Shown: piece by piece, positions 729 through 59,858 of the stretch | Layout of the letters: each line of letters begins with the position of its first letter | How positions within the stretch are numbered: the first letter of the stretch is position 1 | NCBI RefSeq assembly: GCF_000379825.1 | Contig: NZ_KB903836.1 | Span: forward strand, 62,599-126,598 | Length of the DNA: 64,000 nt | Reading direction: 5' to 3' | DNA from: Longispora albida DSM 44784 | GTDB taxonomy: Bacteria > Actinomycetota > Actinomycetes > Mycobacteriales > Micromonosporaceae | The notes under the pieces: model-generated | Told to the model about the DNA's origin: nothing | The model's database searches: none | Seen by the model: the letters and a program-made list of their open reading frames with translations, nothing else | Made by a program: the position numbers and the translations under genes

Positions 729-1400
729 TTGACGTTCCGAGCAGTTCGATCACCTTCTTCGCCTTGGCGGCGCAGGTTCGCGGTCATGGCGATCGTCGCC
801 CTGGGGGCATCTGCGGCCATACAGGGCCCGGCGTCCGCCCACACGCACACGGCGGCCAAGCCGACCCGCGCCCAGCAGGAACTGCTTTCCAGGGTCCCCG
901 CATCGGCAGCCGTCCTGCAGAAGCAGATCGACCTGCAGCTTTCCCTGTACCCGGGCGGCAAGCAGACCTCGGCGAACGAGGTCTCCTACGACGGCGGGAA
1001 CTTCGTGATCACCTTCGCGAAGCCGGCCACCACCCAGCCGTCCCTGCTCAGCGGTAAAGGCGACTGCCCGGACGGGTGGTTCTGCTTCTGGGACTACGAG
1101 TACTACGGCGGAGCCATGGGCAAGCTCAGCAGCTACGGGGCACAGGATCTGTGGCGGTACGGCTGGAGCGACCGCATCGAGTCGGCCTGGAACCGTACGA
1201 ACACAGTGGTGCGGTTCTACAACCACACCACGGGCAGCCACTCGGAGTACGCGATCAGCTCCTACGATCAGTACCTCTTCATGGTCTTCCCCGGCGATTA
1301 CGACACGAGTGTCAAGTACCTGGCCGACGGCGAGGACTCGGAACGGAACAAGGCTGATCACGTCTACCGGTGCGGGGGCCCGGGCGGGAGCATGTGCTGA
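729..1400 (+). CDS. Secreted peptidase inhibitor family I36 protein
   Basis: A 223-residue exported protein. I chose the TTG at 729 because a GGAAGAGGAG ribosome site lies just before it and the next residues form a signal peptide: a basic run (WRRR), a hydrophobic core, then GPASA before HTHT. The mature domain carries CPDGWFCFWDYEYYGG and ends YRCGGPGGSMC, giving four cysteines for two disulfides; this is the beta/gamma-crystallin-like pattern of family I36 (Streptomyces metalloproteinase inhibitor SMPI). It is likely to act outside the cell on proteases. The frame stays open upstream to an ATG at 594, but that would bury the signal peptide. Confidence 0.75.
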   Translation: MTFRAVRSPSSPWRRRFAVMAIVALGASAAIQGPASAHTHTAAKPTRAQQELLSRVPASAAVLQKQIDLQLSLYPGGKQTSANEVSYDGGNFVITFAKPATTQPSLLSGKGDCPDGWFCFWDYEYYGGAMGKLSSYGAQDLWRYGWSDRIESAWNRTNTVVRFYNHTTGSHSEYAISSYDQYLFMVFPGDYDTSVKYLADGEDSERNKADHVYRCGGPGGSMC

Positions 1401-3344: not shown

Positions 3345-3548
3345 ATGAATCCCTTCGAGGATGCCAGCGGGACGTATCTCGTCCTGATCAACGACGAGGG
3401 CCAGTACTCGCTGTGGCCGGAATTCGCCGCGGTGCCGGCCGGCTGGTCGGTCGCGAAAACTGCGAGTTCCCGCCAGTCCTGCCTGGACTACGTCAACGAG
3501 CACTGGACGGACATGCGTCCCAAGAGCCTGATCGAAGCGATGGGCTGA
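3345..3548 (+). CDS. mbtH: MbtH-like NRPS chaperone
   Basis: A 67-residue protein matching the MbtH family end to end: NPF at the start, [16 protein letters not shown] in the middle and [12 protein letters not shown] near the end, with the conserved Trp residues present. MbtH proteins bind and activate adenylation domains. The ATG at 3345 follows a good GGAGGAAC ribosome site. It lies only 13 bp before the NRPS start, so it is co-transcribed and presumably serves the five A domains encoded downstream. Confidence 0.93.
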
Positions 3549-3561
3549 CGGGAAAATCGTG

Positions 3562-6500
3562 ATGCCAGGTCTACGGGTACCCGCCGAACTTCCGCTCACC
3601 GCCGCCCAGCGCGGCGTCTGGTACGCCCAGCAGCTCGCCCCGGGCAGCCGTGCCCTGCACCTCGGCGAGTACCTCGACATCACCGGCCCCCTGCGGCCGG
3701 AGCTGTTCGAGGTGGCTCTGCGCCGGACGGCCGCCGAGGCCGCGTGCCTGACCGCCCGGTTCGGCCAGTCGCCGGACGGCGAGGTCCGCCAGCACGCCGG
3801 CGGGGTACCGGGCTGGGAGCTTCCCGTCCTCGACCTCAGCGGGGAGGCGGACCCCGCCGCCGCCGCGAGGGACTGGATGGACGGCGACCTCGCCCGGCCC
3901 TTCGACCTGGCGGGCGGGCCGCTGTTCCGGTTCGCGCTGTTCCGCCTGGGCGCTGACAGGTACGTGTGGTGGCACAGCTATCACCACCTGGTCATCGACG
4001 GCTTCGGCATGGGCCTGGTCGCGCGGCGGGTCGCCGAGACGTACACCGCGCTGGAGGCTGGCGAGGACGTACCGGACAGCCCGTTCGGTGAGCTGGCCGG
4101 CCTCATCGGCCGGGAGAGCGAGTACGCGGAGTCGGGCCGGCGCGCGCTGGACCGTGACTTCTGGGCCGGGTACCTGAGCGACTGCCCCGAGCCGGTGAGC
4201 CTGGCGCACAGCCAGCCGGTCCCGCCGACCGGCGTGATCCGCCGGACGAGCTGGATCGGCAAGGACGTCGTCGCGGATCTCGGCGAGGCGGCCGGCGCGT
4301 CGGGTACCCGCTGGCCGCTGGTCGTCATCGCGGCCTGGGCCGCCTACCTGCACCGGATGACCGGCGCACCCGAGGTCGTGGCCGGGCTGCCAGCAGCCGT
4401 GCGCCGCGACCAGCAGGCCCGCAGCACCCCGGCGATGGTGTCGAACGTGCTGCCGCTGCGCGTCCCGATCGGCGCGGGCACGACCGTCGCCGGTCTGATT
4501 GGCCAGGTCGCCGCCGAGGCGCGGACCGTGCTGGCGCACCAGGAGTACCGGCTGGAAGACATGCACCGCGACCTGGGCCGGGCCCGCCTGGCTGGTCCCC
4601 GTGCCAACATCATGAGCTTCGAGTACCAGCTGAGCTTCGGCCGCAGCCGGGCCGTCGCGTCCAACGTGTCCGGCGGGCAGCCCGACGACCTGGCGATGCT
4701 GGTCTACGACCGTCGTGACGGCGGCGCGTACCGGGTGGACTTCGACGGCAACCCTGAGCTGTACTCGGCCGCAGATCTCGCCAGCCACCAGGACCGGTTC
4801 CTGAGCTTCCTCGGGCAGTTCGCCGGCGCTGCTCCCGGTACGGCAGTCGCTGACCTGGAACTGGCCGCAGCCGGGGAACTCGTCAGTGCCAGCGGCGGGC
4901 CCGCCGCTCAGCCAGAGACCCTGGCCGCGCTGTTCGCCGCCCAGGTCGCGCGTACACCTGATGCTCTTGCTCTTGCCGGCGATGACCGGACGCTCACCTA
5001 CGCGCAGCTCGACCGGGAGACCAACCGGATCGCCCGGTGGCTGGTCTCGCACGGGGTGGGTGCCGAGGACCTGGTGGCGCTGGCCTTCCCCCGGTCGGTG
5101 CACTGGGCCATCGCGATGCTCGCCGTGACCAAGGCCGGCGCGGCGTACCTGCCGGTCGACCCGGCATACCCGGCGGAGCGCATCCGCTACATGCTCAGCG
5201 ACGCGCAGCCCGCGCTGGTGCTCACCGTGCCCGAGGTCGCCGGAGCTGTGCCCGGGCCGGTGCTGCTGCTCGACGACGCCGCCGGTTTCGATGACGCGCC
5301 GCTGGCAGGCCGGGCAACGGCCGCCAACGCCGCGTACGTGATCTACACGTCGGGGTCCACCGGGCTGCCGAAGGGCGTGACGGTCACCCACACCGGCATC
5401 GCGAGCCTCGCCGCAGGGCAGGGTGAGCGGCTGCTGGCTGGGCCCGGTGCCCGGATGCTCCAGTTCGCCTCGCCGAGCTTCGACGCGGCCCAGTCCGACC
5501 TGTGGGTCACCCTGCTGAACGGTGCCACTCTGGTCATGCCGTCGGCGGAGCGGATCGCCATCGGAGCGCCGCTCGCGGCCACCGTGACCGAGATGGGCGT
5601 GACGCACCTCAAGCTGCCGCCCGCAGCCCTCGCCGTCCTGCCTGATGACGCGCTCGCTGGTGTCGAGGTGCTCGCGGTGGCCGGTGAGGCCGCGCCGCTG
5701 GACCTCGTGGCCAGGTGGCACGGCGGCCGTCGCATGATCAATGTGTACGGTCCGACGGAGAACACCGTCACCACCACGCTCAGCGGCCCGCTGTCCGCCA
5801 CCGGCCCGGTCCCGATCGGTACCCCGATCACCGGCTCCGGCGTGTACGTCCTCGACGCCAGGCTCCGGCAGCTCCCGCCGGGCGCGGTGGGGGAGCTGTA
5901 CGTGACCGGGGCTGGCCTGGCTCGCGGATACCTCCGGCGGGCCGGCCTGACCGCCGAGCGGTTCGTCGCCTGCCCGTTCGGCGCACCCGGTACCCGGATG
6001 TACCGCACGGGTGACCTGGCCCGCTGGACGGCCGACGGTCAGCTCGTCTTCGCCGGGCGGGCCGACGAGCAGGTGAAGCTCCGGGGGTTCCGGATCGAGC
6101 CCGGCGAGGTCGAGGCCGTGCTGGCCGGCCACCCGGCGGTCCGGCAGGCAGCCGTGATCGTGCGGGAGGACCAGCCCGGCGACCAGCGGCTCGTCGCCTA
6201 CGTCACCGGCGAGGCCGACCCGGCTGCCGTGCGGGCACACGCGGCCGCCCGGCTGCCCGCGCACATGGTGCCCGCAGCCGTCGTCGTACTCGGCCAGCTG
6301 CCCCTCACCCGGAACGGCAAGCTGGACAAGCGCGCCCTTCCCGCTCCAGATCTGTCCACAGTGGTCAATGAATCACGCGCGCCACGGACCGCCACCGAGG
6401 AGATCCTGTGCGGCCTGTTCGCCGAGCTGCTCGGCCTGCCAGCGACCGGCCCGGATGACGACTTCTTCGCCCTCGGCGGCCATTCGCTGCTCGCGGCCCG

Positions 6501-9500
6501 GCTGACCGGCCGGATCCGCGCCGCTCTCGGTGCTGAGCTGTCCATCCGCGACGTCTTCGCCGCCCCGACCCCGGACCGGCTGGCCACCGTCGTGGCCGCT
6601 TCGCAGTACGGGCCGCGCCCGGCGGTGCAGGCCGTCGCGCGTCCCGAGGTGCTGCCACTGTCGGCGGCCCAGCAGCGGCTGTGGTTCGTGCACCAGCTCG
6701 AAGGCCCGGGCGCGACCTACAACATGCCGTACGCGCTGCGCCTCACCGGCCCGCTCGACGTACCAGCGCTGGAATCCGCGCTGGGCGACGTCGTGGCCCG
6801 GCACGAGAGCCTGCGGACGGTCTTCGCCGAGCACGACGGCGTACCCCGCCAGGTGATCCTCTCCGGTGACCGCGCACGGCCGGTGATCGAGCGGCACGAG
6901 GGCCAGCTGTGGCTCACGGAGGCCGCGCACCAGCCCTTCGACCTGGCCCGGGACCTGCCCGTCCGCGCCCACCTCGGCGAACTCGGGCCGGATGAGCACA
7001 TCCTGCTCCTCGTACTGCACCACATCGCCGCCGACGGCTGGTCCACCGGGCCGCTGATGCGGGACCTGTCCGTCGCGTACGCGGCCCGGGTTCGCGGTGA
7101 CGCACCGGAGTGGACGGCGCTGCCGGTGCAGTACGCCGACTACGCGCTCTGGCAGCGTGACCTGCTCGCCGACCGGAGACTCCTGGACACGCAGCTGGGC
7201 CACTGGCGTACGGCCCTCGCGGGCGCACCGGGAGTGCTGGAGCTGCCGTTCGACCGGCCGTACCCGGCTGTGCCCACGAACCGTGGCGCGAAGGTACCTT
7301 TCACCGTCCCGGCGGATCTGCACCGTGACCTGCTACGGCTGGCCCAGGACAACGACGCGACCCTCTTCATGGTGCTGCACGCGGCTTTCGCGGTCCTGCT
7401 GCACCGCTCGGGGGCCGGCCGGGACATCCTGATCGGCACGCCGGTCGCCGGCCGGTCCGACGCGGCACTCGACGACCTGGTCGGGTTCTTCATCAACACC
7501 CTGGTACTGCGGGCAGACCTGTCCGGCGACCCGGGCTTCGGCGAGCTGCTCGGCCAGCTCCGCGAGCGTGATCTCGACGCCTTCGCACACCAGGACCTGC
7601 CCTTCGACCGCCTCGTGGAGGAACTGGCTCCCGAGCGGTCCACGCGGCACCCGCTGGTGCAGGTGATGCTGACCCTGCGCAACACCGGCCGATCGGCCCT
7701 CAGCCTGCCGGGCGTGCTGGCCGAACCGGAGCCGGTCGAGCTGGGTATCGCGAAGTTCGACCTCACCTTCGACTTCGCCGGGAACGCCACCGGGGCCGGG
7801 CAGCCCGCCGGCATGGACGCCTACCTCGAGTACGCCTCGGACGTGTTCACCCCGGAGACAGCTCAGTCCCTTGTGGACCGGATGATGCGCGTCCTGGCCG
7901 CCGTCGCCGCCGACCCGGCGGTCCGGGCCGGCGAGATCGGGGTGCTCAGCCCCGCCGAGCAGGACAAGGTACTCCTGAGCTGGAACGACACCGAGGCTGC
8001 CGTGCCGGCCGGTACCGTGGCGGAACTGTTCGCCGAGCAGGTGGCCCGGACCCCGGACGCGACGGCGCTGACCGACGGGCAGGCCCGGTGGACGTACGCC
8101 GAGCTCGACGCCCGCGCCGCCCGGATCGCCCAGCAGCTCACCGAGGCCGGAGCCGGCCCGGAGACCCCGGTGGCCGTGCTCATGCACCGTTCCTCGAACC
8201 TGGTCGCCGCGCTGCTCGGCGTCCTCAAGGCCGGCGGGGCCTACGTGCCGCTGCTGCCGGAGTACCCGGCCGAGCGGCTCAGCTGGATCGTGCAGCAGGC
8301 CGGGGCCACCGTGCTGCTCACCGAACCGGCGCTGTCCGCCACCACCTTCGAGCATTCCGCGGCCGTCGTGACCGTGGACGGCGGCACGGGTACGAGTGCC
8401 ACGGTGCCCGTGGATCCCGCCAGCCTGTGCTACGTCATGTACACCTCGGGCTCCACAGGTACACCTAAAGGGGTTTCGGTTTCCCACCGCAGCGTCGTGG
8501 CGCTGGCGATGGACCGGAGGTTTGACGGTGAGGCGCACCGCCGCGTGCTGATGCACTCGCCGCACGCCTTCGACGCCTCGACCTACGAGCTGTGGGTGCC
8601 GCTGCTGCGCGGCGGGGAGGTCGTCATCGCCCCGCCGGGGGAGACAGACGTGGCCGCGCTCGCCGGGCTGATCGCCACCAGCGGCGTGACCAGCGTGTGG
8701 CTGACCGCCGGGCTGTTCGGCGCGGTGGCTGAGGAACACGCGGCGTCGTTCGCGCAGGTCCGTGAGGTGTGGACGGGCGGGGACGTCGTGCCGCCGGCCG
8801 CTGTGCGCCGGCTCCTCGAAGCCTGCCCGGGCACGGTGGTCGTGGACGGTTACGGGCCGACAGAGACGACGACCTTCGCCACCTCGTACCCGGTCAGCGA
8901 CGCCGGTGAGGTCACCGCCACCCTGCCGATCGGCTCCCCGCTCGACAACACCCGGGCATACGTCCTCGACGACCGGCTCAGCCCCGTGCCGCCCGGCGTC
9001 GTCGGCGAGCTGTACCTGGCCGGGGACGGCCTGGCCCGTGGCTACGCCGGCCGCTTCGACCTGACAGCCGAGCGCTTCGTGGCCTGCCCCTACGGCGCCA
9101 CCGGCGAGCGCATGTACCGCACAGGCGACCTGGTCCGCTGGGACGCGGCCGGCCGGCTGGTGTTCGCCGGGCGCTCCGACGGCCAGGTGAAGATCCGGGG
9201 TTACCGGATCGAGCTGGGCGAGATCGAGGCCGCGCTGTCCGCGCACCCTGCCGTACGGCAGGCCGTGGTGCTCGCCCGCGAGGACCAGCCAGGCGGCAAA
9301 CGGCTCGTGGCCTACGTCGCCAGCGACGAGACCCCGGCCGGCCTGCGCGCCTACGCCTCGGCGCACCTGCCGGAGTTCATGGTCCCGCTCATCGTCGTGC
9401 TCGACGCCCTGCCACTGACCGGTAACGGCAAGGTCGACAAGCGGGCACTGCCGGCTCCGGCCCTGGCCACCGAGCCGGGCCGTGCCCCGCGTGACGAGCG

Positions 9501-9762
9501 CGAGGAAGTGATCTGCCGGCTGTTCGCCGAACTGCTCGGCCTGCCAGCGACTGGTATCGACGACGACTTCTTCGCCCTCGGCGGCCACTCGCTGCTCGCC
9601 ACCCGGCTGCTGAGCCGGATCCGTACCGCGCTGAAAGCCGAACTGTCCATCCGGGACCTTTTCGAGGCCCGTACCCCGGCCCTGATCGCCGGGAAGCTCA
9701 CCACAGCCAAGCCAGCCCGGCCCACCCTGCGCCGCATGGCACGGAAAGGCAACCCGTCATGA
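3562..9762 (+). CDS. NRPS, two modules: C(starter)-A-PCP-C-A-PCP
   Basis: A 2066-residue synthetase. C1 (about 8-435) has HHLVIDG at 141-147 and resembles EntF-type or acyl-starter condensation domains. A1 (about 453-935) has YTSGSTG near 595; PCP1 has LGGHS with Ser975. C2 (about 1032-1470) has HHIAADG at 1153-1159. A2 (about 1490-1975) follows, then PCP2 with Ser2010. Pocket residues aligned by eye to GrsA: A1 D-A-S-K-A-A-V-V-T-K, unassigned; A2 D-A-Y-W-W-G-G-T-F-K, close to Val codes. No epimerase or methyltransferase is present. A GTG one codon earlier (3559) is possible; ATG gives better spacing to GGGA. Its stop overlaps the next NRPS gene by 4 bp. Confidence 0.93.
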
Positions 9763-12700
9763 CTGTCCTGTCCTACGCCCAGCAGCGGCTGTGGTTCCTG
9801 AACCAGCTCGAAGGATCGAGCGCCACGTACAACATGCCGTTCGCGCTGCGCCTCACCGGTGAGCTGCACCTGCCCGCGCTCCGGGCCGCGCTCGCCGACG
9901 TGCTCGGCCGGCACGAGAGCCTGCGCACCGTTTTCCCGGAACACGACGGCGTACCCGTCCAGCAGATCCTCGAAGCCCCGGCCCTGGACCTCACCGCCGA
10001 GCCGATCGCGGCCACCGGCCTGGCCGCCGCGCTCACACAGGCAGGCCGGGAACCGTTCGACCTGTCGGGTGACCTGCCGCTGCGGGCCCGGCTCTTCGCC
10101 CTCGAACCGGGCGTGCACGTGCTCCTGCTCGTCGTGCACCACATCGCCGGTGACGGCTGGTCGATCGCGCCGCTGATGCGGGACCTGTCCGAGGCCTACG
10201 CCGCCCGGCTCGGCGGGCAGGCCCCGGACTGGGAGGAACTGCCGGTCCAGTACGCCGACTACAGCCTGTGGCAGCGCGAACTGCTCGGAGAGGAACACGG
10301 CGTCCTCGAAGAGCAGCTCGGCTACTGGCGTGGCGCGCTCGCCGGTGCCCCGGCCGAGATCGCGCTGCCCTTCGACCGCAGGCACCCGGCCGTGCCGTCC
10401 CACCACGGCGACCGGGTGACGTTCACGATCCCCGCCCCGGTACACCAGGGGCTGGTACGCCTGGCCCGTGAGGCCGACGCGACCCTGTTCATGGTCCTGG
10501 AGACCGCCGTCGCGGCGCTCCTGCACCGGATGGGCGCTGGTGAGGACATCCCGCTCGGCACCGCCGTGGCCGGCCGCACCGACGAGGCCCTCGACGACCT
10601 GGTGGGCTTCTTCGTCAACACGCTCGTGCTGCGCGCGGACGTGTCGGGCGAGCCGACGTTCCGTGAGCTGCTGGCACGGGTCAGGGAGACGGCGCTGGGT
10701 GCGTACGCCCACCAGGACATCCCCTTCGACCGGCTCGTCGAGGAACTGGCCCCGGCCCGCTCGCTCGCCAGGTCGGCGCTGTTCCAGGTGATGGTGCTGC
10801 TCCAGAACAACGCGACGGCCGGGCTGGACCTGCCGGGGCTGCGCGCCGAGGCGGAGCAGGTGGTGCTGAACGTCGCCAAGTTCGACCTGCTCATCAACTT
10901 CACCGAGCGGCCGTCCGATGTGGAGTGCGTCATCGAGTACGCCACGGACGTGTTCGACGCACCCACCGTGGAGGCCATCGCCGCGCGGCTTGGCACCGTG
11001 CTCGCCGCCCTCGCCAACGACCCCGGCATGCTCGTCCGGGACGTCGAACTGCTCGGCGAGGCCGAGCGCCGGGCTCTCACCGCCCCTCCGGCGGTCTCCG
11101 GGACCACAGCGGACACGATCGTGTCCCTGTTCGAGACCCAGGCCGCCGCCCGGCCGGACGCCATCGCGCTGACCTGCGGCGACACCGGCATGACGTACGG
11201 CGAGCTGAACGCCGCCGCCAACCGGCTGGCCCATCACCTGATCGCCCGGGGCGCGGGGCCGGGCGAACTGGTCGGCATCCGCTTCCCGCGCTGCCACGAG
11301 GCTGTCGTCGCGCTGCTCGGCGTGCTCAAGGCCGGGGCGGCGTACCTGCCGATCGACCCGTCATACCCGGCCGACCGGATCGACTACATGCTCGCCGACG
11401 CCCAGCCGGTCCTCACCGTGACCCCGGAGACCCTGGCGGCCACGGCGGGGGAGCCGGCCACGAACCCGGCCGTGGACCTCTCGCCGGACCATCCGGCATA
11501 CGTCATCTACACCTCCGGCTCGACCGGCCGTCCCAAGGGCGTGCTCATCCCGCACGCCAACGTCGCCCGGCTGATGTCGCAGACGGAGGACTGGTTCGGG
11601 TTCGGCCCGCAGGACGTGTGGACACTCTTCCACTCCTACGCCTTCGACTTCTCCGTCTGGGAACTGTGGGGCGCGCTGCTCTACGGCGGCCGGCTCGTCG
11701 TGGTGTCCTACGCCGACAGCCGCTCACCGGAGGACTTCCTCCGCCTGCTGGTCACCGAGCAGGTCACCGTGCTCAACCAGACCCCCTCGGCCTTCTACCA
11801 GCTGATGGCCGCCGACCGGGACAACCAGGCCCTCGGAGCCCAGCTGTCGCTGCGTACCGTCATCTTCGGCGGGGAGGCCCTGGACCTGGGCCGGCTCGCC
11901 GACTGGTACAGCAGGCACGATCCGGCCGCCACGGTGCTGGTCAACATGTACGGCATCACCGAGACCACCGTGCACGTCTCGTACCTGGCTCTCGACGCGG
12001 AGTCGGCAGCGGCCCTGCCCGGCTCCGTGGTCGGCGGGCCGATCCCCGACCTCGCCATGTACGTGCTCGACGAGCGCCTGCGGCCGGTACCGGCCGGCGT
12101 GGCCGGTGAGCTCTACGTCGCGGGCGCTGGCCTGGCGCACGGCTACCTCAACCGGCCGGACCTGACGGCGGGGCGGTTCGTCGCCAACCCGTTCGCGGAC
12201 GGCTCCCGGCTCTACCGCACCGGCGACGTCGGCCGCTGGCTGCCCAGCGGGCTCCTGGAGTACCTGGGCCGCAGCGACGACCAGGTGCAGCTGCGCGGCT
12301 TCCGCGTCGAACTCGGCGAGATCGAGCAGATACTCGCCCAGCAGCCCGGCGTCACCGGCGCGGCGGTACTCGTCCGTGACGACCGGCTGATCGGCTACGT
12401 GACCGGCGACGCGCACCCGGACCGGGTACGCGAGGAAGCCTCCCGGGTCCTGCCCGACTACATGGTGCCCTCAGCCGTCGTGGTGCTGCCGTCCTTCCCG
12501 CTGACCGGCAACGGCAAGCTCGACCGCGCGGCCCTGCCCGCGCCGGACTTCACGAGCAGTGGGGCCGGCCGCGAGCCGCGTACCCCGGCCGAGGAGATCC
12601 TCTGCGGACTGTTCGCCGAGGTGCTGGGCGTGGAATCGGTCGGAGCGGACGATGACTTCTTCGCGCTCGGCGGCCACTCGCTGCTCGCCACCCGGCTCGC

Positions 12701-15700
12701 GTCCCGGGCCCGGTCTGCGCTCGGCGTCGAGCTGCCCGTCCGCGAGGTCTTCGCCGCGCCGACCCCGGCCCGGCTGGCTGCGGTCGCTGAGGCGGCGGCT
12801 GGCACGGTACGGCCGAGGCTGCGCCCGATGGAGCTGCCCGACCCGCTGCCGTTGTCGGCCGCTCAGCAGCGGCTGTGGTTCCTCAGCCAGCTCGACGGGC
12901 CCAGCGCCACCTACAACATGCCGTACGCGCTGCGCCTGACCGGTGACCTCGACGCCGCCGCGCTGCTGGCCGCGCTGAACGACCTCGTGGCCAGGCACGA
13001 GAGCCTGCGCACGGTGTACCCGGCGCACGAGGGCGAGCCGCGCCAGGTGATCCTGGCGGACGCGGCCGTCGAGCTGGCGGAGCGCGCCGTCGAGCCCGCG
13101 GCACTCGCACGGGAACTGGCCAGGGCCGCCGCCGTGAAGTTCGACCTGGCCAGCCAGCTTCCGCTGCGCGCGTCGCTGTGGTCGGTCGCGCCGGGCGAGC
13201 ACGTGCTCGTACTCGTGATCCATCACATCGCCGGCGACGGCTGGTCGATGGCTCCGCTGCTGCGTGACCTGTCTGCGGCGTACGCGAGCCGGGTGGCCGG
13301 TGAGGCGCCACAGTGGACGGAGCTGCCCGTCCGGTACGCCGACTACACGATGTGGCAGCGCGAGCTGCTCGGCTCCCACGCCGACCCGGAGAGCCTGATC
13401 AGCCAGCAGCTCCGGTACTGGAAGGAAACCCTGGCCGGGGCACCGCAGGAGCTGGAGCTGCCCTTCGACCGGCCGCACCCGGCGGTCGCGTCCCACCAGG
13501 GCGGGCACATCCGGTTCCAGCTCAGCGCCGGCCTGCACCGTGCGCTGCTCAAGGTCGCGCGGGAGACCGACACCACGCTGTACATGGTGCTCCAGGCGGC
13601 TTTCGGCGTCCTCCTGCACCGCGCCGGGGCCGGGGACGACATCCCGATCGGCGTGCCGGTCGCCGGGCGGACCGACGAGGCACTCGACGACCTCGCAGGC
13701 TTCTTCGTCAACACCCTGGTGCTGCGGACCGACCTGAGTGGCAATCCGGCCTTCGGTGAGCTGCTGGCCCGGGTACGCGAGACGGCACTGAGCGCCTACG
13801 CCCACCAGGACGTCCCCTTCGAGCGGGTGGTGGAGGAGCTGGCCCCGGCCCGTTCGGCGTCCCGCCAGCCGCTCGTCCAGGTGCTCCTGGCCCTCCAGAA
13901 CACCGCCCACGCCGGCCTGGAGTTCCCGGGGCTCGGTGTCACGCCCGAGCCGGTGAGCATGAACGTGGCGAAGTTCGACCTGCTGGCCAGCTTCGAGGAG
14001 CAGGGCGGCAGCGGCGAGCCGGGCGGGCTCAACGGTGTCGTCGAGTACGCAGCCGACGTCTTCGACCGCTCCACCGCGCAGTCCCTCACGAGCAGGCTGA
14101 TCAGCATCCTGGAAGCCGTGGCGGCCGACCCGCACGCGCCGCTGGCCCGGATCGGTGCCCTGTCGGCAGCCGAGAACGAGCTGATGCTGGCCGCCGGGGA
14201 CCGTACGCGGCCGGCCGTCCAGGGGACCGTGCCCGAGCTGTTCGCCGCGCAGGCCGCGCGTACGCCGGACGCCCCGGCACTGTGGATGGACGGCACCACC
14301 GTCAGCTACGCCGAGCTCGACGCCCGCGCCAACCGGCTCGCGCACCGGCTGATCGCCGCCGGTACCAGGCGCGAGGTGCCGGTGGCCGTGCTGATGGAAC
14401 GCTCGGTCGACCTGGTCGTGGCGCTCCTCGCCGTGCTCAAGGCCGGCGGCGCGTACGTGCCGCTGCTGCCCGACTACCCCGCCGAGCGGCTGAGCTGGAT
14501 CGCCTCACAGGCCGGAGCCCGGGTACTCCTGGTGGACCCGGCACTGTCAGATGTGGAGTTCGACCACTCCGCGACCGTGCTCACCGTGACCGGGGACGGC
14601 CCGGAGCACGACCCGGCCGTCGAGCTGCACCCGGACAACCTCAGCTACATCATGTACACCTCCGGCTCCACCGGCCGCCCCAAGGGCGTGGCGATCCGGC
14701 ATCGCGACATCGTGGCTCTCGCCGCCGACGGCCACTGGGACGGCGGTGCGCACGAGCGGGTGCTGTGCCGCTCCCCGCACGCCTTCGACGCGTCCACCTA
14801 CGAGCTGTGGGTGCCGCTGCTGCGTGGCGGGACGGTCGTGATCGCCCCGCCGGGTGAGCTCGACCTGCCCGCGCTGGCCCGCACGATCTCCGAAGGGCGG
14901 GTGACCTCGGCCTTCCTCACCACGGCCCTGTTCAACCTGCTGGTCGAGGAAGGGCCGGAGCACCTGGCCGGGCTGCGCGAGATCCTCACCGGAGGCGAGG
15001 CTGGCAGCCCCGCCGCGATGCGCCGGTTCCTGAAGAACTGCCCCAGCACCGTCCTCAGTCACGTGTACGGGCCCACCGAGGCCACCACCTTCGCCACGGC
15101 GTACCCGCTGGCCGACCCGGCGGAGCTGCCCGGAGACGAGGCCCCGATCGGCACTCCGCTCGACGGGATGCGCGCCTACGTCCTCGACCAGTACCTCCAG
15201 CCGGTGCCGGCCGGGGTCACCGGCGAGCTGTACCTGGCGGGCGCTGGCCTGGCGCGCGGCTACACCGGCCGGGCCGACCTGACTGCCGAGCGGTTCGTCG
15301 CCGACCCCACCGGCCGGGCCGGCTCGCGGATGTACCGCACCGGCGACCTCGTCCGGTGGAACCCGTCCGGGCAGATCGTCTTCGTCGGCCGGGCCGACGG
15401 GCAGGTGAAGCTGCGCGGGTTCCGGATCGAGCTGGGCGAGATCGAGGCTGTCCTCGCCGCGCACGACGACGTGGGCCAGACCGTCGTGGTGGTCCGCGAG
15501 GACCGCCTGGTCGGCTACGTCACCCCGGGCCGGGCCGGCCGCCCGGTGAGCGCCACCGAGGTCCGTGAGCACGCCGCGCGCCGGCTGCCGGAGTTCATGG
15601 TGCCGGCGGTGATCGTGCCGCTGGATGGCCTGCCGCTGACCACGAACGGCAAGGTGGACCGCCGGGCGCTGCCGGCACCGGATCTCGCGGTGCTGGCCGG

Positions 15701-18700
15701 TCCGGTCCGTGCGCCCCGTAACGAGCGCGAGGAGATCCTGTGCGGGCTCTTCGCCGGGCTGCTCGGCACTCCCGTGGCCGGGATCGACGACGACTTCTTC
15801 GCGCTGGGCGGGCACTCGCTGCTCGCGACCAGGCTGGTGTCGCGGGTCCGTGCGGCCCTCGGGGCGGAGATCGCCGTACGGGACGTGTTCACCGCGTCCA
15901 CGCCGGCCCGGCTCGCCGCGCTCGTGGCGAACGCCGCCAGTGGTACCCGGCCCGCGCTGCACGCGATGCCCCGCCCGGCTCAGGTTCCGCTGTCTGCGGC
16001 CCAGCGCCGGCTGTGGTTCCTGCATCAGCTGGAGGGGCCGAGTGCCACGTACAACATGCCGGTACTGCTCCGGCTGACCGGCGCCCTCGACCAGGCGGCG
16101 CTCCGGGCGGCCCTGGACGACCTCGCCCGCCGGCACGAAACCCTCCGTACCGTGTTCGCCGACGACGGTGGCACCCCGGTCCAGCGGGTACTCGAACCGG
16201 CCCGCCTGCCACTGGAGACGGTACGCGTCGAGGCTTCCGGGCTGGGGCACGCCCTGGCCGGCGCGTCCGGGTACCGCTTCGACCTCGCCGCCGAGGCGCC
16301 AGCCCGCGCGTGGCTGTTCGAGCTGGGGGAGCGCGAACACGTGCTCGCCATCGTGATGCACCACATCGCTGGCGACGGCTGGTCGATGACCCCGCTGCTG
16401 CGTGACCTGGCCCAGGCGTACACCGCCCGTACCGGCGGCCGCGCGCCGGACTGGGCCCCGCTGCCCGTGCAGTACGCCGACTACACGCTCTGGCAGCGCG
16501 ACCTGCTCGACGGTGTCCGCGACACGCAGCTCGGCTACTGGCGTCAGGCGCTCGCCGGCGCGCCCGCCGAGCTGGAACTGCCCTTCGACCGGCCCCGCCC
16601 GGCCGTGCCCTCGTACCGGGGCGGGCACGTGCCGTTCACGGTCGGCCCGAAGCTGCACGCCGCGCTGGTCGGCCTGGCCAGGGAACAGGACGCGACGCTG
16701 CACATGGTGCTCCAGGCCGCGCTCGCGGTACTGCTGCACCGGCTGGGAGCCGGCGAGGACCTGCCGATCGGGACGCCGGTGGCTGGCCGTACAGACGAAG
16801 CTCTTGATGATCTGGTGGGTTTCTTCGTCAACACGCTGGTGCTGCGCGCCGACCTGTCTGGTGACCCGGCGTTCACCGAGCTGCTGGCGCGGGTGCGCGA
16901 GTCCGCACTGGACGGTTACGCGCACCAGGACGTGCCCTTCGACCACCTCGTGGAGGAACTGGCCCCGGACCGCTCCCTGGCACGGCAGCCGCTGTTCCAG
17001 GTGATGTGCGTGCTCCAGAACAACGCGCGCGGCCAGCACCGCTTCGGCGGCCTGCACGTGTCGGCCGAACCGGCGGGCCTGCCCGTCGCCAAGTTCGACC
17101 TGACTGCCGTCTTCTCCGAGCAGCCCGGCCGCCAGGGCGAACCGGCGGGCCTGGCCGGCGTGCTGGAGTACGCCACGGACCTGTTCGACCGCGCCACCGC
17201 CGAGGTGCTGGCCGAGCGGCTGGTCCGGGTCCTCGAAGCCGTCACCGCGGCTCCGGCGCGCCCGGTCGGCCAGGTGGACGTGCTCACGCCCGCCGAGCGG
17301 GAGAACGTGCTGGTGACCTGGAACGACACCAGTACCCCGGTGCAGACCGGCACGCTCGCGGCGCTGTTCGCGGCGCAGGTGGCCCGGACACCGGACGCGA
17401 CGGCGGTCATCGGCGACGACGTGACGCTCAGCTACGCCGAGCTCAACGCGCGCGCCAACGTCCTCGCCCGCTGGCTGATCAGCCAGGGAGCCGGGCCGGA
17501 GGACATCGTCGCGCTGTCCTTCCCGCGTTCCGTGCACTGGGTGATCGCCATGCTCGCGGTCACCAAGGCCGGCGCGGCTTTCCTGCCGATCGACCCGTCC
17601 TACCCGGCCGACCGGATCAGGTACATGGCGGGCGACGCCCGCCCGGTCCTGCTGCTGACCGTCGCCGACACGGCCGGTGAGCTGCCCGAACTCGGCGTCC
17701 CGCTGGCGCTGCTGGACTCGGAGGAGGTCGTCACCGCGCTCGCGGGGCTGCCGGCCAGCCCGGTGTCCGATGTGGACCGGGTGCGCCCGCTGGCCCTGGC
17801 GAACACGGCGTACGTCATCTACACGTCCGGCTCCACCGGCCGTCCCAAGGGTGTCGCCGTCAGCCACGCCGGCATCGCGAGCCTGGTGCTGGCGAAGGCC
17901 GGCCGGTACGGGATCAGCCGCCACAGCCGGGTGCTCCAGTTCGCCTCGCCGAGCTTCGACGCGGCCATCGCCGACATCTGCCCGGCGCTGCTGTCCGGCG
18001 CGGCCCTGGTCGTGCCGTCGGCTGAGCGCCTCACGGTCGGCCCGCAGCTGGCTGCCACGATCGCGGAGACCGGCGTGACGCAGGCGACGCTGCCGCCAGC
18101 CGCGCTGGCCGTCCTCGCGGAAGAAACCCTTTCCGGTGTACGCGTCCTCGCGGTCGCCGGCGAGGCACCTTCCTCCGACGTGGTGGACCGCTGGTCGGCT
18201 GGCCGGACGATGGTCAACGCCTACGGGCCGACGGAGACCACGGTCTGCGCCACGATCAGCGAGCCGCTGGCAGCAGGGGCCGGACCGGCTCCGATCGGCG
18301 CCCCGATCGCCAACACCAGGGTGTACGTGCTCGACGCCCGGCTGAGCCCCGTGCCACCCGGTGCGGCAGGCGAGCTGTACGTGGCGGGCTCCGGCCTCGC
18401 CCGTGGCTACCTGCGCCGCCCGGACCTGACATCCGACCGGTTCGTGGCCTGCCCGTGGGGCCGGCCGGGTGGGCGGATGTACCGCACCGGTGACCTGGTC
18501 CGCTGGGGCGCCGACGGCCAGCTGGTCTTCATCGGCCGGACCGACGACCAGGTGAAGGTACGCGGGTTCCGGATCGAGCTGGGCGAGGTGACCCGGGCCG
18601 TGGCCACGTGCCCTGGCGTCCGCCAGGCCGTGGTGATCGCCCGCGAGGACCGGCCGGGGGACAAGCGCCTGGTGGCGTACGTGACCGGGCATGCCCTGGA

Positions 18701-20273
18701 GCCATCCGGGGTGCGGGAACACGCGGCCCGGGAACTGCCCGGCTACATGGTGCCTGCGGTGGTGGTCCTCGACGTGCTCCCGCTGACCAGCAACGGCAAG
18801 GTCGACAAGGCGGCGCTGCCAGCCCCGGCCCTCGCCGCCGAGCAGGGCAGGGCCCCGCGCGACGCCCGCGAGGAAGTCCTCTGCGGACTGTTCGCCGAGG
18901 AACTGGGCGCGCCGGCGGTGAGCATCGACGACGACTTCTTCACCCTCGGCGGCCACTCGCTGCTGGCCACCCGGCTCGCGGCCCGGATCAGGGCGACGCT
19001 CGATGTGGAGGTGTCGGTCCGCGACATCTTCCTCGGCCGGACCGTGGCCGGGCTGGCCGAAGCGCTGTCCGGTACCGCCCGGCGCGGCGCCGACCTGACA
19101 GCCGACGCCCAGCTAGACCCGTCGATCGTCATTGGTACCGGGGCCGTGCGCGCCGAGCCGGAGCACATCCTGCTCACCGGCGCGACGGGCTTCCTGGGTT
19201 CCTTCCTGCTCACCGAGCTGCTGAAGGCGTACCCGGCGGCGCGGATCACCTGCCCCGTCCGGGCGGAGGACCAGGTCGGCGCGATGGCGAGGATCGAGCG
19301 GAGCCTGCGCCGGTACCAGCTGTGGGACGAACGGGTCCGCGAGCGCGTCACCGCGATCCCTGGCGACCTGGAGCAGCCCCAGCTGGGCCTGACCGGCGCG
19401 CGGTTCGCCGAGCTGGCCGCGAACGTGGACGTGATCTACCACAACGGGGCGCGCGTGCACCTCGCCGACCCGTACGAGCGGATGCGCGCGGCCAACGTGC
19501 ACGCCACAGTGGACATTCTCCGGCTGGCCGCCGGGCGGGCGGTGCCCGTGCACTACGTGTCCACCGGCAGCGTGCTGATCGCCGCCGGCGAGAACCCGCC
19601 GCTGCTCACCGAGGACCGGCGGGTGGAGGCGGGCCAGGTACCGGCCAACGGGTACATCCAGACCAAGTGGGTGGCCGAGGAACTGGTCCGCGAGGCTGGG
19701 CGGCGCGGCCTGCCCGTGGCGATCTACCGGCCGGGCCGGATCAGCGGTGCGGTCACCACCGGAGCGACCGGCGAGGGCGACGCGTTCTGGAACATGATCC
19801 GCGCCTGCGTCGAACTCGGCGCGGCCCCCGACGGCGGCCAGCTCACCCCCGTCGACCTGGTACCCGTCGACTACGTGGCCGCAGCGCTCGTGCAGCTGTC
19901 CCGTTCGGCCTCCGGCGGGGCGTACAACCTGATCAACCCGGAACTGACCCGGCCGGAGGACGTGCTCGACGCGGTCCGCGCCGCCGGGTACCCGGTGCGC
20001 AGCCTGCCCGCAGCCGAATGGGCCGCCGAACTGACGGCGGCGGCGCGCACCGCCGGAGCGGGCAGCTCCCTGCCAGGGGTGGCGCTCCTGCACGGCGGCG
20101 CCCCCGCCCCTGGTGACGGCAAACCCAGCCAGGCACCCCGTTTCGACCATGCCAGCACCCTGCGCGGACTCGCCAGCTCCGGCATCGCCTGCCCGGCCAT
20201 CGGCCCCGGCACGCTGCGGCGCTACGTCGAGTTCTTCGCAGCCACCGGTTTCCTTCCCGAGGAGCGTTCATGA
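9759..20273 (+). CDS. NRPS, three modules with terminal thioester reductase: (C-A-PCP)x3-TD
   Basis: A 3504-residue synthetase. Module 3: C with HHIAGDG at 127-133, A (about 455-945), PCP Ser974. Module 4: C, A, PCP Ser2020. Module 5: C, A, PCP Ser3067. Each condensation domain keeps HHIAGDG. Pocket residues by eye: A3 D-F-W-N-I-G-M-V-H-K, the classic Thr code; A4 D-A-Y-F-L-G-V-T-F-K, Ile/Val-like; A5 D-A-A-T-A-A-A-V-C-K, closest to Phe/Tyr codes but with W239 and I299 replaced by Ala, so a larger pocket. The last 375 residues are a reductase with GATGFLG near 3139 and YIQTK (Tyr3299, Lys3303), which releases the chain with NADPH as an aldehyde or alcohol. No thioesterase. ATGA overlap with both neighbours. 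Confidence 0.94.
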
Positions 20274-21532
20274 GCCAGCCACTGATCCTGCGCAACAGGG
20301 CGTTCGCCCAGGTGTGGGCGGCACAGATCTTCAGCCAGGTCGCCACCCGGATGTTCCAGGTCGGTACCGTCTGGTGGGTCGTCAGCTCCGTCGCCGAGGC
20401 CAACCGTGGCAAGGCCACCGGCCCGTTCATGATGCTGGCGACCCTGCCGGCCGTCCTGCTCATCCCGGTCGTGGCACGGACACTGTCCCGTTATGCCAGC
20501 CGTACCGTGATGCGGACAGCCGAACTGGCCGCCGCCACAGTGGCCCTGGTACTCCTGGCCTGGTCGGTGGCCGGTGACCTCCCGCTGCTGGCGCCGTACC
20601 CTGCGGTCCTGCTGCTGGCCGCCGCCCAGTGCTTCTTCGATCCGTGCCTGACCAAGTCGGTACCCGAGATCGTCGACCGCGAGGACATCCAGCACGCCAC
20701 GTCGTTCGAGATGTCCACCCAGTCGATCGCGGGGCTGACCGGCGCGGTGGCCGGGCCGTTCCTCATCCACCTCGGCGGACCCGGAGCCCTGGTCGGCGTG
20801 TGCGCGGGAAGTTACCTGCTGTCCGCGCTGCTGCTGCACCTGGCGAGCTTCCGCCCCGTCCCGGCTCCGGCACCGGCTGCCGCTCCGGCTCAGCCCGCAC
20901 CGGCGGGTAGCGGCGGGACCGCGACGCTCACGGCTCCCGCCCCCGCTCGCCGCACGCTCCGGGCGGTACTCGCGGACCTGCCCTTCATCCGCGCCGTCCT
21001 GGTCTGCTTCGCCGCGGCGAACCTGTTCGCCACGGCTGGCGCGGTCATCTACCCGCTGTACGTGAAGAGCCTGTTCGGCGACAGCCCCGTGACGCTGGTC
21101 CTGTTCCAGTCCGCCATCGGGATCGGCATGATCATCGGGTCCTTCTCCGGGCCGCGCATCCCGGGCAAGCCCGCCACGCTCGGCGCGCTGTGCCTGACCG
21201 GGATCGCGGCAGGCCTCACCGTCCCGGGCCTGGTGACCAGCCGGGCCGTGATCCCCGTGGCGCTGCTGCTGGTCGGCTGGTGCGCCGGCGTGCTCGGCGT
21301 GAAGTTCGTGACCCTCTTCCAGCACACCGTCCCGGCCACCGACAAGCCGGTGTTCTTCGCGGCGATGCAGGCCCTGATGACGGTCACGTTCCCGATCGCC
21401 TCGATCAGCTTCGGCTTCCTCGGCGACGTCCTCGAACCGCGGACCCTCTGCCTGATCCAGGGCATCGGCCTCGTACCGGCCGCCATCGCACTCCTCGCCC
21501 TCCGCGGCCGCGAACCGTCCCCGGCCAGCTGA
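20270..21532 (+). CDS. MFS exporter, EntS-like
   Basis: A 420-residue polytopic membrane protein with about 11-12 hydrophobic helices. It opens [22 protein letters not shown], typical of the MFS_3/EntS group, which exports siderophores and peptides. A Pro/Ala-rich cytoplasmic linker at about residues 200-225 separates two six-helix halves. The ATG overlaps the TGA of the reductase-ending NRPS by 4 bp, so it belongs to that operon and most likely exports its product. Confidence 0.85.
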
Positions 21533-22633: not shown

Positions 22634-23029
22634 TCAGCAGGGGCGCAGCGACGAGGCTTTGTTGTCCTCGCGGCCGGGCTGGTTGATCCAGCGCTGGTGG
22701 CTGAAGTCCATGACGTGTGACTCGCCGCCGTAGTTGGCGTCGAAGTACCAGCAGTACCGCATGCTCGTGGTGCTGTACCAGGACGACATCTCGTCGTTCC
22801 AGTTGTTGCCCCAGCATGAGCCGCAGTACTTGCTGTTCAGCTCGGGCACGTAGGTACCGGCGGTGAAGCAGAAGCTGTTGCGGCCCCCGTCGCGGTCCTG
22901 CGCGATGCAGATCGAGTTGGCCCGCCAGGCCAGGGACGGGCTCGCCGTACCGACCACGACGGCGGGGACCACCAGGGCCGTGATCGCGGCGAACGACAGC
23001 ATGGTGCGGCGGGCGAAAGATACGCGCAT
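22634..23029 (-). CDS. Secreted peptidase inhibitor I36-like protein
   Basis: A 131-residue exported protein. The ATG at 23029 follows GAGGAGAAG. A signal peptide (RRTMLSFAAITALVVPAVVV...PSLA) precedes a mature domain with six cysteines. YCWYFDANYGGE and the closing NKASSLRPC match the beta/gamma-crystallin-like I36 inhibitor pattern. It is the second such gene flanking the NRPS operon; the similarity to the 729-1400 product lies in fold signature and Cys placement rather than close sequence identity. Confidence 0.6.
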   Translation of the reverse strand: MRVSFARRTMLSFAAITALVVPAVVVGTASPSLAWRANSICIAQDRDGGRNSFCFTAGTYVPELNSKYCGSCWGNNWNDEMSSWYSTTSMRYCWYFDANYGGESHVMDFSHQRWINQPGREDNKASSLRPC

Positions 23030-53578: not shown

Positions 53579-56500
53579 CTAGCACTCTCCTGGGAACCGG
53601 CCGCAGCCTCGCTTCTCGTTGCCGCGGATCGGCGGGGCCGGGTCTGGCGCGATCCGTACTTCCTCCGTCCACGTGACGGTCTGGGTCTTCTCCGAGCCCT
53701 GGCCGCTGGGGAAGTAGTTGTTCAGCATCGGGTTGACGTGTTTCTTGTAGAACTCGCTGTACCCGATCGGCGGTGGCAGCCGGGTGGCCGAGGCCATGGT
53801 GCTGGAGTTGGTGATCCGGAAGGCGACCGTCGCGGTGCCCTTCTTCTTGTCCACCCCGATCAGGGTGTACTCCAGGCTGTAGGAGCCCAGCAGGCCGGCC
53901 GACAGGTTGTTCGTCATGTCGTTGTAGAACTTCTTCGCGCTCTGGGTGAACCCGCCGCCCAGGCTGTACCGGTTCGAGTCGCTCCCGCCGACCTTGAGTT
54001 CGCCGCTGCGGACCTGGTCTGCGATCAGTTCCCGGGTCTTCTGGACGTGACCGTGCTCCTGGAGCTTGGTGACGAACCGGTCGCCGTCCTTGAGATCGCG
54101 GTGTTTCGGCCCCTTGCCGGATGCCCATTCCATCCCGATGCCGTAGGCGGTGGGGTCGTCCGGGGTGCCCTTGCGGTTCTTCACCGCGTGGAAGGAGGAC
54201 TCGAACGGCCCGCCCAGGCCCTCGGCCAGGGACTGCGCCCGCGATCCGGTGATCGCGTCGAGCCCGTGGTCGCCGGCGGTCACTCCGGCCACCACCGCCT
54301 CGCCGATCTTCGCGCCGCCGAAGGCGATCACGCCTGCTCCGAACAGCTTGAGCTTGTTGCAGATGTCCCACCAGCACAGGCCGCTCGGGTCGGAGAAGGT
54401 GACCGGGCTGTTGTTGGCATAGAGGTACGCCTGCCACTGCTGGGGATCGCTCAGGTCCATCACCGGGTCCGGTGAGACGAACCTGCCGATCGCCGGGTCG
54501 TACTCCCTGGCGCCGAGATGCGTCAGGCCCGTGCTGTCCTTCGTGCCGCCGACCAGGCCACGGTCGAGGCTCGCCGGCCAGCTGCGGGCCACGTTGCGCT
54601 CGGTACCGAACGGGGTGCTCCGCCGGCTCGACACCGCCTGCGTCACGGCGTTCACCGTGACCTGGGTGGTGCCCTGCGAGTCCTGCACGAGCCAGGTCAG
54701 GCCGGTGCTGGTCCGGGTGGCGGCTGTCTGGCCGCCGTGAGTGTAGTACCGGGTGCCGGTCTTCGCCGTGCCGTTGAACCGGATCTCCTGCCCCGGCAGG
54801 TACAGCGTGGTACCCGACGGGTCCTTCCGGATCAGGCGGCTGCCGTCGGCGTCGTACACATAGGACGATGTCCCGGACTTGTCGGTGCTGCTCGCCAGGT
54901 GGCCTTCGGCGTCCCACAGCAGCGTCTGCGTGCCGTTGGCGCCGGCCGGCCGGGTCTCGGTGTTACCGGCGGCGTCGTAGGTGTACGTGCCGGTCCTCGT
55001 CCCGGAGTTGTCCGTGGTCACCGTCTTGGCCAGCGCGTGGCTGCCCGCCTCGGGCGTGTACACAGTCGTCCGGTCGCCGGCCGTGGTGCCGTGCTCCACC
55101 TGCTGCGTGCGGTTGCCCAGCACGTCCAGGGTGAACTTCTGCCAGTACTTCGCCGGGCCGCCCAGCCCGGCCGCCGTCGGGGCCGCCTTGCAGTCGCGGG
55201 CGGCCGGTGTCCATGCCTCGGTCAGGCGCTGGAGGTAGTCCGACCTGAAGCACTGGTTGTCGCCGCTGGTCAGGTCGGAGATCGCGGAGACGTTGCCCGC
55301 CAGGTCGTAGCTGTAGCGGACGTCGGAGATCGTGGCTGGCCCGGTCTGCTTGGACGTCCAGATCTGGTCGAGCCGCCGGGTGCCCTCCTCGTAGTGCCGG
55401 GTGATGTCCACAGTGTTGCCGCCCTCGTTGCGCAGGCTGTAGGTGCCCAGCTCGCTGAACGAGGTGTACGTCGAGCCCGCGACCAGCGTCGTCTTCGCCC
55501 TGGTCCCGTAGCCCGAGTCCAGCGTCACCGGCCGGCCCATCCCGTCGTACCCGTAACCGAGGGTCTCCACAGCCAGGTCACCGGCCGCCGGGATGCGCTG
55601 GCTGAGCGCCGTGCCGTCCTGGTTGTAGGTGTAGACGTAGGTGTAGGTGCCGTTCACGCCCGCAGCCGGGATCGTGTACTTCACCGCGCTCGGCTGGTAG
55701 TCGGCCGTGAAGCCGGTGGTCTCCTTCACGTAGGCCTCGGCCCCGATGAACCTGGTCGAGCGGACCAGCTTCCCGTTGACCTTCTCGCCGCTCGGCAGGG
55801 TGTCGAAGTCCCAGCTCAGCCGGAGCGGCCCGTCAGCGGCACCCTCCCGGACACTCGTCTTGCGGCCGATCTTGTCGTAACCGAAGTACAGCGTGATCTT
55901 CCGCGCGTCGGTGACGCTGGTGACCTCACCGAAGTCGTTGATCTTCGTTTCGGTGGTGCCCCGGTCCGGGTCGGTGGTCTTCACCGTCCGGCCCCACAGG
56001 TCGTACTCGTAGCCCCAGCTGTTGCCCGCCGGGTCGGTGACCCTGGACCGCTGGCCCTTGCGGTTGAACGTGTACCGGGTCGCGTCATAGTCCGCCGGGT
56101 TGGCGCTGCCCGCCGTCTCACCCGCGTGGTACTGCCGGAACTCCACCGTCCGCCCGGCCGCGTCCTTGAGCGTGGACGTCGGGGTGCCGCCGGCCGCCGG
56201 GGTCACGTCGACCCGGTCGCCGCCGTACGCCGTCGTGCTCCTCGACCGGACCGTGCCGTTCACCTTCAGCGTGGACGCGACCGGCCGGCCGGCCCCGTCG
56301 AAGGTGGTCTCGCTGCGGTTCGGAACCTGCTGGGTCGGCCGGAACAGGTCCGGGCCCGGGCTGCCGAGCGCGAGGTACATGCCGTGTGCGGCGCTGGCCC
56401 GACCGGCCGAGTCGTAGAAGGTGTCCGTGACGACCACGCCGCTGCCGCCGGCCCCGTTCGCCGACTGGGTCTGCCGGGGACGGAGCATGCTGTCGTACAG

Positions 56501-59776: not shown

Positions 59777-59818
59777 GTCTGTCTTCCTGTACGAGGGGAT
59801 CGCGGGAGAGAGGGGAAC

Positions 59819-59850
59819 GGGGCTGAGCCGATTGCCGTCAGCTCAGCCCC
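59819..59850 (-). terminator. Hairpin between the LamG and RHS genes
   Basis: A perfect 10-bp stem, GGGGCTGAGC/GCTCAGCCCC, with a 12-nt loop, 9 bp past the LamG stop and 43 bp before the RHS start. It could attenuate read-through so that less RHS than LamG protein is made. Confidence 0.6.
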
Positions 59851-59858
59851 GGGTACTG

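What the first reader, a model, noticed from the sequence alone, without database searches (positions are those of the whole stretch)
3345..21532. NRPS operon predicted to make an acylated pentapeptide aldehyde or alcohol
Five modules on two proteins with a reductive terminal domain and no thioesterase. Pocket residues read by hand give X-Val-Thr-(Ile/Val)-(bulky/aromatic). Established: TD domains release aldehydes or alcohols; DFWNIGMVHK-type pockets load Thr and DAYWWGGTFK is near Val codes. Inference: a C-terminal aldehyde on a hydrophobic peptide is a typical covalent protease or proteasome inhibitor warhead. I do not recall a known product with this residue order.
Basis: partly seen in the sequence, partly recalled or inferred. 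Interest (0 to 1): 0.75.

Follow-up and report, generated by a model that had tools for sequence, protein, structure and literature searches.

The report
Five-module acyl-peptide assembly line, reductive release
A four-gene bacterial operon encodes an enzyme assembly line predicted to make a fatty-acid-capped five-residue peptide ending in an aldehyde or alcohol; it belongs to a known kind of pathway, and its few close relatives carry exchanged substrate-selecting domains.

Summary
The operon is real and complete: MbtH, NRPS1 (Cs-A-T-C-A-T), NRPS2 (C-A-T x3, thioester reductase), MFS transporter, overlapping at two of three junctions, catalytic motifs intact. Pockets: M1 DASKAAVVTK (unassigned), M2 DAYWWGGTFK (Val), M3 DFWNIGMVHK (Thr), M4 DAYFLGVTFK (Ile/Val), M5 DAATAAAVCK (aromatic-like) (literature passages). 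The first C domain is closest to acyl starter domains (RzmA, then CDA), with Met at RzmA's chain-length gate, suggesting a short to medium acyl cap. The reductase is closest to MxaA and MxcG, recalled as alcohol formers, so aldehyde versus alcohol is open. The reductase region occurs at high similarity in 5 of 354 searched genomes of the family. C domains mostly group by module, A cores by pocket: the Val core at M2 here sits at M1 in Actinoplanes sandaracinus. Such A-core exchange is already described (PMC8097286, passages). No product with this residue order turned up in the paper searches aimed at it, mostly seen as listings; MIBiG could not be searched. Verdict: new member of a known kind. 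The protease-inhibitor role is inference; no extra proteasome gene was found.

The parts
3345..3548 (+). MbtH-like A-domain helper (stop codon included)
   Evidence: PF03621, 93.8 bits; 84-88% identical in G136, G239 and G207
3562..9762 (+). NRPS1, Cs-A-T-C-A-T (modules 1 and 2)
   Evidence: Pfam; 56-62% identical to the orthologues in G136, G207, G239
3562..4881 (+). Starter condensation domain C1 (bounds approximate)
   Evidence: Best solved relatives RzmA-Cs 283 bits, CDA-Cs 250, ObiF1 199, EntF 168; HHLVIDG intact, Met at the RzmA R148 position
4915..6351 (+). A1, code DASKAAVVTK, substrate unassigned (bounds approximate)
8029..9456 (+). A2, code DAYWWGGTFK, Val (bounds approximate)
   Evidence: same code listed as Val in PMC9113097 (passage)
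9759..20273 (+). NRPS2, C-A-T x3 and terminal reductase (modules 3 to 5)
   Evidence: Pfam; 68-77% identical to the orthologues in G136, G207, G239
11106..12548 (+). A3, code DFWNIGMVHK, Thr (bounds approximate)
   Evidence: same code at the Thr position of cyanopeptolin in PMC2533009 (passage)
14241..15653 (+). A4, code DAYFLGVTFK, Ile or Val (bounds approximate)
   Evidence: 9 of 10 letters shared with DAFFLGVTFK at Ile/Val positions of cyanopeptolin (passage)
17391..18833 (+). A5, code DAATAAAVCK, probably aromatic (bounds approximate)
   Evidence: by pairwise identity its core is nearer to the module 2 core of G239 (77%) than to any orthologous module 5 core (67-71%), but the tree does not resolve this
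19173..20270 (+). Terminal thioester reductase domain
   Evidence: PF07993 223.5 bits; TIGR01746 319.6 bits, cut-off 213.35; MxaA 285 bits
20270..21532 (+). MFS transporter, probable exporter
   Evidence: PF07690 62.6 bits, cut-off 33.4; 74-79% identical in G136, G207, G239, G056

Best explanation
The operon is a self-contained peptide assembly line. The first C domain takes an acyl group, most likely a short to medium acyl-CoA, and joins it to residue 1. Modules 2 to 5 add Val, Thr, Ile/Val and a bulky, probably aromatic residue, expected to be L because no epimerase domain is seen. The terminal reductase uses NAD(P)H to cut the chain off as an aldehyde, which may stay as such or be reduced on to the alcohol. 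The MFS protein exports it. If the aldehyde persists, the product should act as a covalent inhibitor of serine, cysteine or threonine proteases. Relatives reuse the same frame with exchanged A cores. Shown by sequence: domain order, intact motifs, pocket letters, conservation, core exchange. Inferred: substrates, acyl length, redox state, export, target.
For: Domains and motifs; starter C domain nearer to RzmA-Cs and CDA-Cs than to ObiF1 and EntF; Met at the RzmA R148 position in the window and in 4 of 4 orthologues, where PMC7804268 (passages) ties R, M and A to C2, C6 and C8; pockets with literature matches; reductase models; conserved four-gene order.
Against: No product is known. M1 is unassigned. 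No acyl-activating gene or free carrier protein was seen among 20 flanking window genes and 8 genes upstream of the window that I scanned with Pfam; other called genes were not scanned, and the acyl donor is inferred. The nearest named reductases are alcohol formers by recall, which argues against a stable aldehyde. PMC12783407 (passages) reports that the OmnF reductase, needed for an aldehyde, lacks the C-terminal helix-turn-helix part, whereas the window domain aligns to MxaA up to residue 417 of 420. In G136 and G207 the second C domain reads NHVAADG instead of HHxxxDG, and one carrier motif of G239 reads GGYSL; the window itself has no such change.
Confidence: 0.72

Rival explanations
1. 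A sub-case of the best explanation with another function: the reductase makes two two-electron steps and the product is an N-acyl pentapeptide alcohol, acting for example on membranes rather than as a covalent protease inhibitor.
For: Closest solved reductase is MxaA, 285 bits, against 107 for a carboxylic acid reductase and 59 for AusA. The highest NCBIfam hit is a stretch of the MxcG model, 325.8 bits, far below that model's whole-protein cut-off of 2300 as expected for one domain. The alcohol products of MxaA and MxcG are recalled; a reference title seen speaks of the myxalamid reductase and primary alcohols.
Against: Similarity does not fix the number of electrons; acyl-peptide aldehydes of Streptomyces also come from reductase-ended NRPS (passages of PMC10548850). 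I had no aldehyde-forming actinomycete reductase as a control.
Confidence: 0.4
2. The starter C domain takes an aryl acid such as 2,3-dihydroxybenzoate, giving a siderophore-like product.
For: The C domain also matches ObiF1 and EntF, and NRPS1 matches the MxcG and EntF models over its first module, below their cut-offs. That these use aryl acids is recalled.
Against: RzmA and CDA starter domains score about 50 to 116 bits higher; no aryl-acid activation gene among the 28 flanking genes scanned.
Confidence: 0.08
3. The aldehyde is only an intermediate that cyclises with a side chain or free amine into a macrocyclic imine or hemiaminal.
For: Known for other reductase-ended NRPS (recalled: nostocyclopeptide, lugdunin).
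Against: A starter C domain predicts a blocked N-terminus; the four operon genes include no tailoring enzyme.
Confidence: 0.07

Closest known systems
Flavopeptin, tyropeptin and other acyl-peptide aldehydes
   Same: Acyl-capped peptide aldehydes of actinomycetes; flavopeptin comes from a reductase-ended NRPS (passages of PMC8009326 and PMC10548850)
   Different: The primary flavopeptin paper is not held, so neither its sequence nor its residue order could be compared
RzmA and CDA starter condensation domains
   Same: Match over nearly the whole domain, HHxxxDG motif, and Met as in CdaPS1 at the gate position
   Different: Other peptides; release step not compared
MxaA and MxcG terminal reductases
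   Same: Nearly full-length match to MxaA with the nucleotide-binding and YxxxK motifs; top NCBIfam stretch MxcG
   Different: Here at the end of a five-module peptide line
A-core exchange in NRPS evolution (PMC8097286, passages)
   Same: C domains keep their place while A cores are replaced
   Different: Another instance, in Micromonosporaceae; here the C-terminal A subdomain also pairs window M2 with G239 M1, whereas the paper says this part is mostly left in place

Membership tests
Reductase-ended acyl-peptide NRPS | Terminal thioester reductase and no thioesterase domain | tested here: met
Reductase-ended acyl-peptide NRPS | Starter-type C domain for N-acylation | tested here: met
   by sequence only
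Reductase-ended acyl-peptide NRPS | Aldehyde product | not testable with these tools
   Sequence kinship leans to recalled alcohol formers; needs chemistry
Known cluster in MIBiG | Close match to a characterised cluster | not testable with these tools
   MIBiG not held; paper searches on products, codes and strain showed no match in what was listed or read
Proteasome inhibitor pathway with self-resistance | Extra proteasome subunit gene | tested here: not met
   2 PF00227 matches in each of 5 of 5 genomes; this does not exclude the proteasome as target
Natural A-core exchange | C domains orthologous by position while A cores are not | tested here: met
   6 of 15 window-orthologue module pairs have A cores at 42-45% identity with C domains at 62-69%; trees, with M2 C domains unresolved

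The most novel reading that the evidence does not exclude
One fixed frame (starter C domain, C domains kept by position, a conserved Ile/Val pocket at position 4 and the reductase) is being refitted in nature with exchanged A cores at positions 1, 2 and 3 and a drifting or exchanged pocket at position 5, yielding a panel of acyl-peptide aldehydes or alcohols aimed at different proteases, with the same core even moving between module positions.
Probability: 0.3. Interest if true: 0.55.

Novelty: new member of a known kind. Interest (0 to 1): 0.36.

Why it matters
If the product is an aldehyde it is a candidate covalent protease inhibitor with a residue order that did not turn up in my limited searches. 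The small group also offers naturally occurring A-core swaps between modules of one assembly line, useful for engineering: a Val core behind two different C domains, and an unassigned pocket with Lys at position 278 in four of the five genomes.

Tried and rejected
Code searches in papers: DASKAAVVT, DAATAAAVC, DAHTVAAVC and DAYFLGVTF gave no hit; DAYWWGGTF gave one paper and DFWNIGMVH four. A wider prefix search held 118 papers; the 20 listed were all unrelated and the rest were not seen. A four-term search on Actinoplanes peptide aldehydes returned none. The search for pentapeptide or lipopeptide aldehydes listed 7 papers and that for Micromonosporaceae 6; of these I read only passages of PMC10548850. 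PMC12283262 was read in passages and adds that DFWNIGMVHK also serves modified Thr; its code tables are not in the text.

The A1 pocket shares Lys278 with the 3-methyl-Glu codes listed in PMC9113097, but its core groups with aromatic-type cores, so I left it unassigned. A role for the neighbouring Inhibitor_I36 genes was dropped because no gene in the fetched flanks of the orthologues had them as best match at E up to 1e-8. Structure prediction and fold search were not run. In one search the nine-letter M4 strings are wrong in their last five letters because of an offset error of mine; one search gives the right codes.

The order search with the MFS protein found 1 of 397 genomes, the window's own, at 1e-110; the class search with the reductase found 2 of 394, the window's own and a 50% relative. 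Both are samples whose hits did not include the known orthologues.

Full report
Observation. The operon runs from an MbtH gene (3345-3548) through NRPS1 (3562-9762) and NRPS2 (9759-20273) to an MFS gene (20270-21532); NRPS1/NRPS2 and NRPS2/MFS overlap by four bases. Pfam gives C-A-T-C-A-T and three C-A-T modules with a terminal NAD_binding_4 domain. Five HHxxxDG, five GGHSL and five TSGSTG motifs are present in the window proteins, and GATGFLG and GYIQTK in the reductase.

Specificity. By alignment to the Thr-type domain of the window the codes are DASKAAVVTK, DAYWWGGTFK, DFWNIGMVHK, DAYFLGVTFK and DAATAAAVCK (the final K was read and set). PMC9113097 (passages) lists DAYWWGGTFK as Val for PstD of A. 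friuliensis. PMC2533009 (passage) has DFWNIGMVHK at the Thr position, DAFFLGVTFK at positions found as Ile or Val (its text also says Leu), and DAWTIAGVCK at Phe(Me), which shares 7 of 10 letters with M5.

Start. The first C domain scores 283 bits with RzmA-Cs, 250 with CDA-Cs, 199 with ObiF1 and 168 with EntF. PMC7804268 (passages) identifies 7C1H as RzmA and reports that the residue at R148 gates acyl length, with R, M and A for C2, C6 and C8. The window and 4 of 4 orthologues have Met there. A short to medium acyl-CoA is the inference.

Release. The reductase meets TIGR01746 and is nearest to MxaA among solved chains. MxaA and MxcG are recalled as alcohol formers. PMC12783407 (passages) says reductase domains release aldehydes or alcohols, and that the OmnF reductase, needed for an aldehyde, lacks the C-terminal helix-turn-helix part; the window domain aligns to MxaA to near its end. 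I put aldehyde somewhat above alcohol only because the actinomycete acyl-peptide products I saw described are aldehydes.

Distribution. At E up to 1e-150 the reductase region is found in 5 of 354 genomes of the family; at 1e-110 in 4 of 67 of the genus of G136. The other genome of the window's own genus has a 56% relative in a longer NRPS. G239 is Actinoplanes sandaracinus, since contig length and gene place equal those of L001; that species is in Micromonosporaceae and the window's genome is listed in the same family. Three of the four other genomes hold the whole four-gene order. G056 has the reductase end and MFS gene at the start of contig C11 and a first piece of NRPS1 on C19 that seems to stop at the contig end, judged from the length of L115; its MbtH was not looked for on C19. 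Apart from a TPR protein at about 31% in G207, no fetched flanking gene of these four genomes matched the window genes around the operon at E up to 1e-8, which supports the four-gene boundary.

Core exchange. In 60-residue steps most values between window and orthologues lie between about 50 and 95%; the long low stretches of 20-50% lie over the A cores of M1 (G239), M2 (all three) and M3 (G136, G207). Single low steps occur elsewhere, such as 32% at the start of NRPS1 of G207 and 45-48% at residues 61-120 of NRPS2 in G207 and G136. Of 15 module pairs, 6 have A cores at 42-45% while their C domains are at 62-69%; the other 9 have cores at 67-83%. In trees of 21 rows, C domains of M1, M3, M4 and M5 group by module and those of M2 stay unresolved, while A cores group by pocket: window M2 with G239 M1 (support 95/88) at 79% identity, against 42-44% for its positional counterparts. 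The core of window M5 is closer by identity to M2 of G239 (77%) than to M5 of any orthologue (71% at best), while its C domain is closest to M5; the tree leaves this open. This is the A-core exchange described in PMC8097286 (passages). Against a pure core swap, the tree of the A-domain end also pairs window M2 with G239 M1 (99/97).

Intactness in relatives. In G136 and G207 the second C domain reads NHVAADG, and the last carrier motif of G239 reads GGYSL. Whether these matter is unknown.

Function. A protease inhibitor role is inference. Each of the five genomes has two PF00227 matches, side by side, so no spare subunit points to the proteasome. Ten paper searches were made; seven of them bore on products, codes or the strain, and nothing listed or read named a product with this order. 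The library lacks most subscription journals, and MIBiG was not available.

Verdict. A real, intact, rare operon of a known kind. Interest is moderate for its unassigned first pocket and its natural core swaps.

Noticed in passing
786-1400 (+) and 22634-23029 (-): Inhibitor_I36-family genes lie on both sides of the operon (44.6 and 25.8 bits); none was matched by fetched orthologue flanks at E up to 1e-8.
   Followed up: partly
53579-63677 (-): A large Rhs/SpvB-like gene (53579-59164) and, upstream of it on the same strand, a LamG and ricin-B-lectin gene (59859-63677).
   Followed up: no
27583-52053: Phosphoketolase, GAF histidine kinase, LuxR-type response regulator and two nitroreductase-family genes, with several universal-stress-like proteins read by eye and not scanned: looks like a dormancy or low-oxygen island.
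   Followed up: no
L106-L107 (G040), L108-L109 (G007), L110-L111 (G082): Other MbtH-preceded, reductase-ended NRPS whose first A domain sits at the protein start; G007 and G082 have a Pro-like pocket (DVQFAAHVVK, DVQYAAHLVK; compare DVQYVAHVVK = Pro) in the second A domain.
   Followed up: partly
L099-L102 (G136, G207): The C-terminal A subdomains of modules 3 and 5 are very alike within each genome, which suggests gene conversion inside the gene.
   Followed up: no
L112:3156-10706: Upstream of the window: a penicillin amidase gene, two beta-lactamase-family genes and a LysR-type regulator.
   Followed up: no
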